The notes beneath the pieces are model-generated. The model saw only the letters and a list, made by a program, of their open reading frames with translations, had not been told where the DNA came from and did not search any database. From contig JAFKGK010000002.1 in NCBI GenBank assembly GCA_017307165.1, positions 186,001-250,000 on the forward strand: 64,000 nt of DNA, written 5' to 3'. The first letter of the stretch is position 1. Every line of letters begins with the position of its first letter. The translations under genes were made by a program, and so were the position numbers. This document shows positions 10,850-15,468 of this stretch, piece by piece. This DNA is from Candidatus Melainabacteria bacterium (GTDB lineage: Bacteria; Cyanobacteriota; Vampirovibrionia; Obscuribacterales; Obscuribacteraceae).

Positions 10850-11599
10850 ATGACTCCAATTCCGCAATCGATCTCCGTAGTCATACCTGCATACAACGAA
10901 GAAAAGCGCCTTGCCAGCACTCTCTCGTCAGTGTTTCAATACCTGGATGCAAGGTCTGATAATTTTGAGATTGTGGTCGTCGACGATGGCTCGCATGATA
11001 GCACTCCCGATCTGGTCGAGACTTTTGCAAAACAATATCCTCAAGTGCGGCTGATCTCCTATGCTCCAAACAAGGGCAAGGGTTTTGCCGTTCGCACCGG
11101 CATGCTTTCAGCGACAAAAGACTTGGTTTTGATGAATGATGCGGATGGTGCTACCAATATTGCTGAAATAGAAAGGTTGCTAAATGCCCTCGAGCAAGGG
11201 GCACAGATTGCGATCGGGTCGCGGGCAAAAAAAAGTGACGATGGTTCTACCAGCGTAAAGGCGCACCTGCACCGCAAATACATCGGCAATACTTTTAACC
11301 TTATCGTCCAGTCTTTGCTCTTGCCCGGATTCGCCGATACACAATGCGGGTTTAAGCTATTTACTCGTGATGTAGTGCAGGATATATTTGCAGTGAGTCA
11401 TCTCAATGGTTTTGCCTTTGATGTGGAGATACTATATATTGCCCGCTTGCGACGTTACAAAACACAAGAAATCCCCATCAATTGGACCAATATAACTGGC
11501 TCCAAGGTCAATGTCTTTGTCGACTCACCACGCATGCTCGTGGACGTCATTGGTATCGCAATTGGTGCTTGGACGGGCCGATACCGCAAGCTCAAGTAG
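10850..11599 (+). CDS. Family 2 glycosyltransferase, dolichyl-phosphate glucosyltransferase-like
   Basis: Protein of 249 aa with a GT-A fold signature: VVIPAYNEE near residue 10, VVVDDGSHDST near 45 and the metal-binding NDADG near 97, then IGSRAK and a conserved QCGFKLF segment. The full-length single domain, with no clear C-terminal membrane helices, resembles the Alg5/polyprenyl-phosphate glucosyltransferase group that transfers a hexose from a nucleotide sugar to a polyprenyl phosphate at the inner membrane face. Start at 10850 has only a weak ribosome-binding site (GGTGG). Its last 8 bases overlap the end of the convergent suhB-like gene. The exact sugar and acceptor cannot be read from sequence. 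Confidence 0.85.
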   Translation: MTPIPQSISVVIPAYNEEKRLASTLSSVFQYLDARSDNFEIVVVDDGSHDSTPDLVETFAKQYPQVRLISYAPNKGKGFAVRTGMLSATKDLVLMNDADGATNIAEIERLLNALEQGAQIAIGSRAKKSDDGSTSVKAHLHRKYIGNTFNLIVQSLLLPGFADTQCGFKLFTRDVVQDIFAVSHLNGFAFDVEILYIARLRRYKTQEIPINWTNITGSKVNVFVDSPRMLVDVIGIAIGAWTGRYRKLK

Positions 11600-12404
11600 C
11601 TGCTCGTGCAATGCTGGAGACGATGTCGTCGTGTATAAGACCATTGGAGGCAATGATATGCCCTGTGCTCATATCGAGAAGCCCTCCTTCGAGGTTGCTC
11701 ACCCGGCCTTTTGCCTCTGCGACTATCAGTGATCCAGCTGCAATATCCCAGGGACTGAGTTTGCGCTCCCAAAAACCATCTAAACGTCCACTGGCAACAA
11801 AGGCTAGATCAAGCGCTGCCGAGCCATCCCTCCTGACGCCATGGCTTTCATTGGTGAGCATCTTAAAAGTCGCCATATTGTCATCAAAGCTTTTGAGCGT
11901 ATCTGGAGGAAAACCGGTAGCCAATAGGCTCTTGTCGATCTGATCGATGGAGGAGACCTTGAGGGGTTTGCCGTTCAAAAATGCACCCTTACCTCTCTCA
12001 GCTGCAAAAGTCTCGTCTGCCATGGGGTTGAATACAACTCCGCATTGGATGAGCCCGTCGTATTCAAAGGCTATGGACACGGCAAAAAATGGGTAACTAT
12101 GGGCAAAATTGGTCGTGCCGTCCAGAGGGTCTATGATCCAGCGGCGATTGTTTGATGTGGCAGTCTTTTTTGAGGCGATAGATGATAGGGCGTCTGCCGA
12201 CAAGCCGCCTTCTTCGCCTAAAAAGTCGTCATCGGGAAACGCATCGAAGATGGTCTGGATAATCAGGGCTTCGGATGCCCTGTCTACATCGGTCACAATG
12301 TTGAAGGCACCCTTGTAATCCAATCTTTCGATCTTGCCTACTCTTTCAGCCAGGAGAGCTCCTGCCTTCTTTGCTGCTTGCAAAGCGATTTCCATTTCTG
12401 CCAT
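11592..12404 (-). CDS. suhB: Inositol monophosphatase family protein (SuhB-like)
   Basis: Protein of 270 aa with the three metal-site motifs of the family: GEEGG (residues 63-67), DPLDGTTN (92-99) and WDIAAG near residue 215. Such enzymes hydrolyse inositol-1-phosphate or related sugar phosphates with Mg2+. Bacterial SuhB also joins rRNA antitermination complexes, but nothing here shows which role applies. ATG at 12404 follows AAGG at a suitable distance. It diverges from ileS across a 217-bp region holding the ileS leader, and converges on the glycosyltransferase with a short overlap. Other family members (CysQ, fructose-bisphosphatase-like) are less likely given the length and motif context. 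Confidence 0.88.
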   Translation of the reverse strand: MAEMEIALQAAKKAGALLAERVGKIERLDYKGAFNIVTDVDRASEALIIQTIFDAFPDDDFLGEEGGLSADALSSIASKKTATSNNRRWIIDPLDGTTNFAHSYPFFAVSIAFEYDGLIQCGVVFNPMADETFAAERGKGAFLNGKPLKVSSIDQIDKSLLATGFPPDTLKSFDDNMATFKMLTNESHGVRRDGSAALDLAFVASGRLDGFWERKLSPWDIAAGSLIVAEAKGRVSNLEGGLLDMSTGHIIASNGLIHDDIVSSIARAAT

Positions 12405-12438
12405 TTCTTTACCTTATGCATTGTTTGCCTGGTTTTTG

Positions 12439-12467
12439 TTGACGTGCTGCCAGGCGGCGGCTATCCT
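12439..12467 (+). promoter_or_regulatory. Predicted promoter of the ileS leader
   Basis: TTGACG (12439-12444) and TATCCT (12462-12467) are separated by 17 bp, matching the vegetative consensus at 5/6 and 4/6 positions. Transcription would start near 12474, giving a leader of about 150 nt before ileS. Confidence 0.5.
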
Positions 12468-12518
12468 CGTCTTTAGCCCGGTGTGTGACCCGGTACTTTA
12501 CAGCCTATATCAATACCC

Positions 12519-12548
12519 ATGTATACAAGCATTATTATTCCAACATAA
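12519..12548 (+). CDS. Putative ileS leader peptide MYTSIIIPT
   Basis: A nine-codon ORF (ATG at 12519, TAA at 12546-12548) with three consecutive ATT isoleucine codons at 12531-12539. It starts about 45 nt after the predicted transcription start and ends 3 nt before an antiterminator arm (12552-12558). A ribosome stalled at the Ile codons would leave that arm free; one reaching the stop codon would cover it. This is the geometry of leader peptides controlling amino-acid biosynthesis operons and pheST. The weak point is the absence of a clear Shine-Dalgarno sequence before the ATG. Confidence 0.55.
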   Translation: MYTSIIIPT

Positions 12549-12551
12549 TTT

Positions 12552-12605
12552 GCTGGCGCGACATAATCTATTCGCCGCCAGCGCCTTGCGTTGGCGGTTT
12601 TGTTT
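12552..12605 (+). terminator. Terminator/antiterminator pair in the ileS leader
   Basis: The terminator pairs CCGCCAGCGC (12575-12584) with GCGTTGGCGG (12588-12597) as a 10-bp stem with one G-U pair and a 3-nt loop, followed by TTTTGTTT (12598-12605). The alternative antiterminator pairs GCTGGCG (12552-12558) with CGCCAGC (12576-12582), entirely inside the terminator's 5' arm, so the two folds exclude each other. The hairpin lacks a T-tract on the opposite strand. The only rightward gene upstream ends 1 kb away, so attenuation of ileS is the natural reading. Confidence 0.7.
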
Positions 12606-12621
12606 ATTAACGGAGTTGAGC

Positions 12622-15468
12622 ATGAAAGACCAGGACAAGCCATCCTACAATGTCAATCTACCTAAGACGAGCTTTCCGATGAAGGCCAATAGCGCTGTGC
12701 GCGAGGTCGAGATCCAAAAGATCTGGGAAGAAAAGCAGGTCTATGCTCGCAATCTCCAAAAGCGCAAAGGCAATGCCAAATACGTGCTGCATGACGGGCC
12801 GCCTTATCTGAGCTCCGACAAAATCCACATCGGTACCGCTCTAAATAAGATCCTTAAGGATATCGTCACCAAGTATAAAGCTCTTAAGGGGCATTATGCG
12901 CCATATGTGCCTGGTTACGACAGCCATGGCCTGCCCATCGAAAACGCCGTGCTCAAAGACGTCAAAGGTGGTCGTTCTGCCATGACACCTGTGGAGTTAC
13001 GTAAAAAGTGCCGGCAGTTTGCCTTGTCCAATCTCAAAGGACAAGAAGACAACTTTAAGCGTCTGGGAGTCTGGGGCGATTGGGAGCACCCATACATCAC
13101 TCTGGATCAACACTTTGAGGCCAAGCAATTGCGCGTCTTTGGCAAGATGGCTGCCGCTGGCTATCTCTACAAGGGGCTCAAGCCCGTGCAGTGGTGTCCA
13201 AACTGCGAAACCGCCCTTGCCGAAGCAGAAGTCGAATACGCCGATCATGTCTCGCATTCAATCTATGTCAAATTTAGAGTGGACTCTGGTTCTCTCGATA
13301 GATTGCCAGACTTTGCCAAAAGCAATCAAAATGTCTCATTTGTCATCTGGACGACCACTCCCTGGACTTTGCCGGCCAACCTGGCTGTGGCTCTCAATGC
13401 AGACTTTGACTACGATTTTTATCGTCTCGAGGAGACTGGCGAGGTCCTGGTCTTTGCCGATGCCCTCAAAGCGGCTTTCTTAAGAGAAGCCGAACTGGAT
13501 GAGTCCAAGATGACCCTATTGGGTTCGATCAAGGGCAAGATGCTCGAAAATCTCGAGACCAGGCATCCATTTATGGATCGTACTTCGCGCGTGATCCTCG
13601 GCGATCACGTCACTGCCGAGGCTGGTACTGGCTGCGTTCATACCGCTCCTGGACATGGTCCAGAGGATTTTATCATCGGTAAAAAATACGATCTCGGCGT
13701 CCTTTCCCCTGTGGATGGACGCGGAATTTTCACCACTGATGGTGGCCCATTCGTCGGTCAGCGCTACGACAAGGCCAGTCCTCTGGTAGTCGACTTGTTA
13801 GCCGAAAAGCAAGTCTTAATCAAGCATCTCAAGTTTTCGCACAGCTATCCTCATTGCTGGCGTTGCAAAAAGCCCTTGATTTTTAGAGCGACCGAGCAGT
13901 GGTTTGCTTCTGTCGATGGTTTTCGTCAAAAGGCTCTCGAGGCTATCGACAATGTGCAATGGCTGCCGGCGTCTGGTCGCAATCGCATCTTTAAGATGGT
14001 CGAAAACCGCGCGGACTGGTGCATCTCTCGCCAGCGTGCCTGGGGAGTACCGATCCCAGTCTTTTATTGCAAAAAATGCAACGAGCCTTTATTAACAGAA
14101 GAAAGCGTCGAGAAAGTCGCCAAGGTTTTTGACGCTAATGGTTCTGATTCATGGTGGGAATTGCCCGTCAGTGAATTTATCGGTGGCAGCAAGTGCGCAA
14201 AATGCGGTCATGATGATTTTGAGCGAGAACAGGACATCATGGATGTCTGGTTTGATTCTGGTTCGACTCACGCCGCAGTGCTAGATGCACGCCCTGAGCT
14301 CGGCGGCACCCCATGCGAGCTCTATCTCGAAGGTTCCGACCAGCACCGTGGATGGTTTCAATCATCACTCCTTACTTCTGTGGCAACCAATGGTCATGCG
14401 CCTTATAAGAGCGTCCTCACTCATGGTTTTGTGGTCGACGAAAATGGCCGTAAAATGTCCAAATCACTGGGCAATGTCGTGGTGCCGGGTGATGTGATCA
14501 AAGAGTACGGTGCTGATGTATTGCGCCTCTGGGTGGCTTCGGTCAATTATACCGACGACATTCCGATCGGCAAAAATATGCTCAAACAGCTTGCCGACGT
14601 GTATCGAAAACTCCGCAATACTGCGCGTTTCATGTTAGGCAATCTCTATGATTTCGATCCTGCAAGAGATATGGTCGCTATCGATCGCTTGCAGCCAATA
14701 GACAGATTTATACTGCACAGGCTCAATCTTTTGGTCGAGCAGGTGACACAAGACTTTGATCGCTTTGAGTTTTTCAAGTATTATCAACTCCTGCAAAATT
14801 TTTGCGGCGTCGAGCTCTCGTCCTTTTATTTTGATATCCTCAAGGACAGGCTCTACACTCAGGCTGCAAGCTCAACTTCGCGAAGAGCCGCACAAACTGT
14901 TCTTGTGCATCTCCTGCACGCCTTAACCAGATTGCTTACCCCTGTCACTCCACATATGGCAGAGGATATCTGGCAACATCTGCCGGCACCATTGGCACGT
15001 TTTTACGGAGATCTGGACAGTGTGCTCTTGGCCGACTATCCAATCGTCGAAAAAGACTTTGATCTGGGCGATAAGGCGAGATTGTTTGATGAGATGAAAC
15101 TCGTCAGGGATACCGTCTACAAGGCACTGGAGTCGGCTAGAGCTCAGGGCAAGATCGGCAGTTCGCTCGAAGCGAGAGTCGATTTGACCATCCAAAATGC
15201 AGACCTTGCTGCGATGGTTTCTGGCATGGGCGACGATCTGCCATCCTTTTTCATCACCTCTCAGGCAAGCGTGACAAATGAGCAGAGCCATAAGCCACAA
15301 GAGATCTTGGCCACGCTCAAGGAAAATGGCACAGAAGTAATCGTCAGCCGTGCTCATGGCGAAAAATGCCAGAGATGCTGGAAATATCTTGACTCTGTCG
15401 GAGCCGACCCTGCCTTTAGTGCTATTTGTGCTCCATGTGCTCAGATCGAGGCTGCCCTGGTCGTCTAG
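12622..15468 (+). CDS. ileS: Isoleucyl-tRNA synthetase
   Basis: Class Ia aminoacyl-tRNA synthetase of 948 aa, the normal bacterial length. It charges tRNA-Ile in the cytoplasm and edits Val-tRNA-Ile. ATG at 12622 follows CGGAG at 7-nt spacing; the frame is open further upstream (to 12334) but that stretch is leader. Visible motifs: DGPP at residues 58-61, the class I signature as HIGT (69-72) instead of the usual HIGH, a CP1 editing domain in the middle (WTTTPWTLPANLA), KMSKS near residue 611, and a C-terminal zinc-ribbon pair (CQRCW, then CAPC). The 3' end overlaps the convergent potC gene by 47 bp. Expression is probably controlled by the attenuator just upstream. Confidence 0.96.
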   Translation: MKDQDKPSYNVNLPKTSFPMKANSAVREVEIQKIWEEKQVYARNLQKRKGNAKYVLHDGPPYLSSDKIHIGTALNKILKDIVTKYKALKGHYAPYVPGYDSHGLPIENAVLKDVKGGRSAMTPVELRKKCRQFALSNLKGQEDNFKRLGVWGDWEHPYITLDQHFEAKQLRVFGKMAAAGYLYKGLKPVQWCPNCETALAEAEVEYADHVSHSIYVKFRVDSGSLDRLPDFAKSNQNVSFVIWTTTPWTLPANLAVALNADFDYDFYRLEETGEVLVFADALKAAFLREAELDESKMTLLGSIKGKMLENLETRHPFMDRTSRVILGDHVTAEAGTGCVHTAPGHGPEDFIIGKKYDLGVLSPVDGRGIFTTDGGPFVGQRYDKASPLVVDLLAEKQVLIKHLKFSHSYPHCWRCKKPLIFRATEQWFASVDGFRQKALEAIDNVQWLPASGRNRIFKMVENRADWCISRQRAWGVPIPVFYCKKCNEPLLTEESVEKVAKVFDANGSDSWWELPVSEFIGGSKCAKCGHDDFEREQDIMDVWFDSGSTHAAVLDARPELGGTPCELYLEGSDQHRGWFQSSLLTSVATNGHAPYKSVLTHGFVVDENGRKMSKSLGNVVVPGDVIKEYGADVLRLWVASVNYTDDIPIGKNMLKQLADVYRKLRNTARFMLGNLYDFDPARDMVAIDRLQPIDRFILHRLNLLVEQVTQDFDRFEFFKYYQLLQNFCGVELSSFYFDILKDRLYTQAASSTSRRAAQTVLVHLLHALTRLLTPVTPHMAEDIWQHLPAPLARFYGDLDSVLLADYPIVEKDFDLGDKARLFDEMKLVRDTVYKALESARAQGKIGSSLEARVDLTIQNADLAAMVSGMGDDLPSFFITSQASVTNEQSHKPQEILATLKENGTEVIVSRAHGEKCQRCWKYLDSVGADPAFSAICAPCAQIEAALVV

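What the first reader, a model, noticed from the sequence alone, without database searches (positions are those of the whole stretch)
12439..12621. Complete ribosome-mediated attenuator upstream of ileS with an Ile-Ile-Ile leader peptide
A promoter at 12439-12467, a nine-residue ORF MYTSIIIPT (12519-12548) with three tandem isoleucine codons, an antiterminator (12552-12558 with 12576-12582) and a mutually exclusive terminator (12575-12584 with 12588-12597 plus a T-rich tract) lie in that order before the ileS ribosome-binding site. A ribosome stalled on the Ile codons would leave 12552-12558 free to form the antiterminator; a ribosome at the stop codon would mask it and allow termination. Leader-peptide attenuation of a tRNA synthetase is known for pheST, while Firmicute ileS uses T-boxes; I know of no ileS leader-peptide attenuator in the cyanobacterial lineage. 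Weak point: no clear ribosome-binding site before the leader ORF.
Basis: partly seen in the sequence, partly recalled or inferred. Interest (0 to 1): 0.82.

Follow-up and report, generated by a model that had tools for sequence, protein, structure and literature searches.

The report
Isoleucine-sensing attenuator before ileS
Just before the gene for the enzyme that loads isoleucine onto tRNA, many Obscuribacterales bacteria (non-photosynthetic relatives of cyanobacteria) carry a tiny isoleucine-rich reading frame and an on/off RNA hairpin pair that should let the cell make more enzyme only when loaded isoleucine-tRNA runs short; this classic kind of switch was apparently unreported in this lineage.

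Summary
Upstream of ileS (12622-15468), in order, lie a TTGACG-17-TATCCT promoter, the ORF MYTSIIIPT, an antiterminator arm and a strong intrinsic terminator. Of 47 readable ileS upstream regions in the same family (Obscuribacterales), 33 regions from 15 of 23 genera have a short ORF with Ile codons clustered just before its stop. An antiterminator arm starts 0-10 nt after the stop codon and pairs with the 5' arm of a terminator before ileS. Ile is the only amino acid so enriched (28 of 33 loci have at least 3 Ile in the last nine codons; next best is Ser, 2 of 33). The terminator shows compensatory changes at 6 of 9 pairs. Ile codons lie where a stalled ribosome leaves the arm free and one at the stop covers it. 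A covariance model finds essentially one copy per genome, at ileS. It was not found in the sister family, other Vampirovibrionia sampled, true cyanobacteria or other phyla fetched. No T-box was found in the genome. It lacks a conserved 1:2 pause hairpin. It is a new member of a known kind (leader-peptide attenuators of tRNA-synthetase genes). No expression data exist.

The parts
12439..12467 (+). sigma-70 type promoter TTGACG-17-TATCCT
   Evidence: the same TTGAC..TAnnnT promoter upstream of ileS in 27 of 47 family loci, 1.2 expected
12519..12548 (+). leader peptide ORF MYTSIIIPT
   Evidence: Ile-rich leader in 33 of 47 family loci; no Shine-Dalgarno here
12531..12539 (+). control codons ATT ATT ATT (Ile)
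   Evidence: Ile at codons -3 to -5 before the stop in 23-26 of 31 leaders, with ATT/ATC/ATA synonyms
12551..12561 (+). antiterminator 5' arm (segment 2), 2 nt after the leader stop codon
   Evidence: arm starts 3-13 nt from the first base of the stop codon in 31 loci
12572..12583 (+). antiterminator 3' arm (segment 3), overlapping the terminator 5' arm; 12576 bulged
   Evidence: core of the helix 86% paired across relatives
12574..12598 (+). intrinsic terminator hairpin, 11 bp, loop CTT (segments 3:4)
   Evidence: 92.5% of cells paired, 6 of 9 pairs with compensatory changes in relatives
12598..12608 (+). U-rich tract of the terminator
12612..12615 (+). ileS Shine-Dalgarno (GGAG), outside the terminator
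12622..15468 (+). ileS, isoleucyl-tRNA synthetase (948 aa)
   Evidence: about 64-72% identical orthologues in the family

Best explanation
A ribosome-mediated transcription attenuator that makes ileS expression respond to isoleucyl-tRNA. Transcription starts near 12474 and a ribosome follows RNA polymerase through the nine-codon leader. If charged Ile-tRNA (the GAU isoacceptor reading ATT/ATC) is scarce, the ribosome stalls at the Ile triplet with its front edge short of 12551; the antiterminator 12551-12561:12572-12583 forms first and ileS is transcribed. If Ile-tRNA is plentiful, the ribosome reaches the stop codon, covers 12551-12561, and the terminator 12574-12598 forms and ends transcription. 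Shown by sequence: parts, order, spacing, conservation and covariation. Inferred: translation of the leader, stalling, and the change in read-through.
For: Conserved order of parts in 33 loci of 15 genera. Ile specificity, with no other amino acid comparably enriched. Shuffle tests for the Ile ORF and the antiterminator (per-genus Fisher p about 2e-15). Compensatory changes in the terminator. Geometry: 106 of 108 Ile codons lie at least 12 nt before the antiterminator arm, while the arm begins 3-13 nt from the first base of the stop codon. Promoter conserved upstream of the leader. One copy per genome, at ileS only, by covariance model (weak extra matches in one genome). No T-box in the genome.
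Against: No expression, 5'-end or ribosome-profiling data. No Shine-Dalgarno before this leader. Antiterminator pairing is not better than shuffles in genus g5, and its compensatory changes are few. No conserved 1:2 hairpin, so without leader translation the switch would tend to read through. 14 of 47 loci in the family lack a complete element.
Confidence: 0.9

Rival explanations
1. A transcription attenuator whose antiterminator is controlled by something other than the translating ribosome (an RNA-binding protein, a small molecule, or uncharged tRNA directly, T-box-like), the ORF being incidental.
For: The leader has no Shine-Dalgarno in this genome; antiterminator and terminator alone would be compatible.
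Against: Ile codons are conserved in frame with synonymous third-base changes and a near-fixed distance to the stop, and no other amino acid is enriched; no T-box and no Rfam family; no conserved structure other than the two hairpins was seen.
Confidence: 0.05
2. An ordinary intrinsic terminator plus chance AT-rich codons, with no regulation.
For: ATT runs are easy to get in AT-rich stretches; this genome alone gives only p about 0.01.
Against: The upstream gene is divergent, so there is nothing to terminate; conserved in 15 genera; Fisher p about 2e-19; compensatory changes.
Confidence: 0.01
3. The leader acts mainly on translation of ileS (re-initiation or coupling), the hairpin being secondary.
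For: A leader ORF close to a gene can raise translation by re-initiation (PMC4833913).
Against: The leader ends 73 nt before the ileS ATG with a terminator in between, and the ileS ribosome-binding site lies outside both hairpins; U-tracts are conserved after the hairpin.
Confidence: 0.03

Closest known systems
E. coli pheST (and pheA, trp, his, ilv) leader-peptide attenuators (from own knowledge)
   Same: short leader ORF with tandem control codons for the amino acid concerned; mutually exclusive antiterminator and terminator; pheST also serves a tRNA synthetase
   Different: ileS instead of pheST; no conserved 1:2 pause/protector hairpin; different phylum; common descent was not tested
Predicted leader attenuators of trpS and leuS in Streptomyces (PMC1262725) and of hisS/hisZ in Bacillus (PMC2965389)
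   Same: tRNA-synthetase gene under a leader peptide with cognate codons and a terminator
   Different: amino acid, gene and phylum; here supported across 15 genera
ileS leader CDS CCNA_03934 of Caulobacter crescentus (PMC4117421)
   Same: a small ORF upstream of ileS
   Different: mentioned there only as a negative-control construct; no mechanism or terminator described in the passages read; sequence not available for comparison here
ileS T-box (Firmicutes; translational T-box in Actinobacteria, PMC1262725)
   Same: senses Ile-tRNA charging upstream of ileS
   Different: T-box binds tRNA directly; none found in this genome and none in 13 cyanobacteria (PMC2494555)

Membership tests
Ribosome-mediated (leader-peptide) transcription attenuator | short ORF in the transcribed leader with clustered codons of the amino acid handled by the gene downstream | tested here: met
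Ribosome-mediated (leader-peptide) transcription attenuator | intrinsic terminator between leader ORF and gene | tested here: met
Ribosome-mediated (leader-peptide) transcription attenuator | antiterminator mutually exclusive with the terminator, 5' arm covered by a ribosome at the stop and free when it stalls at control codons | tested here: met
   weak in genus g5
trp/his-type subtype of leader-peptide attenuator | 1:2 pause/protector hairpin | tested here: not met
   leader-arm pairing no better than shuffles, combined p 0.12; the feature marks the trp/his subtype, not the mechanism as a whole
Ribosome-mediated (leader-peptide) transcription attenuator | leader is translated and read-through rises when the cognate tRNA is uncharged | not testable with these tools
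   needs ribosome profiling and expression data
T-box riboswitch | T-box covariance model (RF00230) | tested here: not met
   no match in the genome, no Rfam match in the window

The most novel reading that the evidence does not exclude
The first leader-peptide transcription attenuator known in the cyanobacterial phylum, evolved inside one family of Obscuribacterales as a single-gene, three-segment device without a 1:2 hairpin, gained between an existing ileS promoter and the gene and lost several times.
Probability: 0.55. Interest if true: 0.6.

Novelty: new member of a known kind. Interest (0 to 1): 0.52.

Why it matters
It adds ileS and the Vampirovibrionia/Melainabacteria lineage to the places where ribosome-mediated attenuation is used. 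A 2016 paper stated that there was no reliable data on attenuation in cyanobacteria (PMC4833913), and T-boxes were not found in 13 cyanobacteria (PMC2494555), so how tRNA-synthetase genes are controlled in this phylum is largely open. Presence and absence within one family, next to a conserved promoter, makes the gain and loss of such a switch traceable.

Tried and rejected
T-box search of the genome and Rfam scan of the window: nothing. valS and leuS of the same genome: no leader attenuator seen upstream. A conserved 1:2 hairpin: not above chance, although the single-sequence fold of this leader suggests one. Scan of 1.26 Mb of the genome for other attenuators: the remaining 17 hits have no run of three identical amino acids before the stop, and the gene products there were not identified. 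ileS upstream regions outside the family (122 regions scanned, which include two re-fetched family members, L121 and L122): two hits, one AT-rich with a weak stem and one a T-box-type terminator in a Clostridia bacterium, neither convincing. That automatic scan also missed the family member L121, whose U-tract is poor, so elements with weak U-tracts could be overlooked. MAFFT misaligned the antiterminator arm, so arms were re-registered by pairing before counting, four of them by hand; that choice favours pairing somewhat. The first count of terminator pairs was off by one column and was redone.

Full report
Observation. The window holds, between a divergently transcribed inositol-monophosphatase-like gene (11592-12404, minus strand; named from its sequence, not searched) and ileS (12622-15468), a 217-bp intergenic region with a promoter TTGACG-17-TATCCT (12439-12467), the ORF MYTSIIIPT (12519-12548; ATT ATT ATT at 12531-12539), and an 11-bp terminator with loop CTT and tail TTTTGTTTATT (12574-12608). 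The promoter and terminator scans gave 3 promoter-like sites against 0.5 expected and 2 terminator-like sites against 0.2 expected. The antiterminator is real but longer than reported: 12551-12561 with 12572-12583, 12576 bulged, -18.6 kcal/mol.

Lineage. The genome is the only held member of its genus, but its family has 50 genomes in 24 genera.

Conservation. Of 47 readable ileS upstream regions in the family, 33 carry the element; they come from 15 of 23 genera. Peptides include MSTLLVSVIII, MFSRAAIIITS, MLVRIIIISS, MAVQGFIISN and MSTLFIFSDNDNFRSIKRAAIIIIGK: the Ile run near the stop is kept while the rest changes. Codons -3, -4 and -5 are Ile in 23, 26 and 23 of 31 leaders, with ATT, ATC and ATA used. 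Counting all amino acids in the same way, 28 of 33 loci with a terminator have at least three Ile in the last nine codons; the next is Ser with 2. Against dinucleotide shuffles the combined per-genus p is about 2e-19; genera are not fully independent, so this is a rough figure.

Structure. The terminator has 92.5% standard pairs, 6 of 9 pairs with changes on both sides, and a covariation score not reached in 500 shuffles. The antiterminator core has 86% standard pairs, far above versions slid by one to three columns, with fewer compensatory changes; its duplex energy beats shuffles in every genus but g5. The arm starts 3-13 nt from the first base of the stop codon, within or at the edge of a terminating ribosome's footprint (up to 12 nt beyond the stop codon, PMC4833913), whereas 106 of 108 Ile codons are at least 12 nt before it. 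A 1:2 hairpin between leader and arm is not conserved.

Regulon and spread. A covariance model of the stop-to-U-tract region finds one match per genome, at ileS, in 33 genomes, plus a weak match at ileS in G040 and four identical weak extra matches in one genome, G045. The element was not found in the sister family (L055-L057), in the other Vampirovibrionia sampled or in the true cyanobacteria and other phyla fetched. On an IleS tree presence and absence need at least eight changes; the two lineages nearest the base (g12, g17) lack it, though several basal forks are unresolved. In four element-free loci the same kind of promoter sits 45-76 nt before ileS, against 133-250 nt in loci that carry the element or, in L053, a remnant, as if the element were a cassette between promoter and gene.

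Chance within the genome. In 1.26 Mb of this genome (about 27%), 113 terminators with a gene downstream gave 18 ORFs with three or more of one amino acid near the stop; only the ileS leader has three consecutive identical codons, and they match the gene's amino acid.

Literature. Leader attenuators are described or predicted for trpS and leuS (Streptomyces, PMC1262725) and hisS/hisZ (Bacillus, PMC2965389); pheST of E. coli is from own knowledge. Caulobacter crescentus has an 'ileS leader CDS' (PMC4117421). T-boxes control ileS in Firmicutes and some Actinobacteria (PMC2494555, PMC1262725), none in 13 cyanobacteria (PMC2494555). A 2016 paper states that no reliable data on attenuation exist for cyanobacteria (PMC4833913). 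Subscription papers, among them Vitreschak 2004 and Lopatovskaya 2010, could not be read, so an earlier prediction of an ileS attenuator elsewhere cannot be excluded.

Verdict. The anatomy, conservation and covariation make a ribosome-mediated, Ile-tRNA-responsive attenuator the best explanation (0.9). It is a new member of a known kind in a lineage where the kind was apparently unreported. Regulation itself remains to be shown.

Noticed in passing
L053 (G040), ileS upstream: Promoter and terminator are kept but the Ile leader ORF is missing, so the terminator would act without a sensor; possibly a decaying element or an assembly fault.
   Followed up: partly
31 leaders, codons near the stop: Leader Ile codons are mostly ATT (82 ATT, 20 ATC, 6 ATA) whereas the ileS genes themselves prefer ATC (698 ATC, 327 ATT, 187 ATA). 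Slow wobble decoding or the need for unstructured RNA could explain it.
   Followed up: partly
G045 contigs C12, C59, C106, C168: Four identical weak matches (E 0.004) to the attenuator model, probably a repeated element with a similar terminator.
   Followed up: no
L020, L022, L040 (genus g8), ileS upstream: These lack the attenuator but share a conserved AT-rich block, roughly CTTCTTAATTA(G/A)AAC, of unknown role.
   Followed up: no
window 12334-12621: The ileS reading frame stays open upstream of its ATG through the whole attenuator (ORF of 1044 aa from a TTG), which could mislead automatic start calling.
   Followed up: partly
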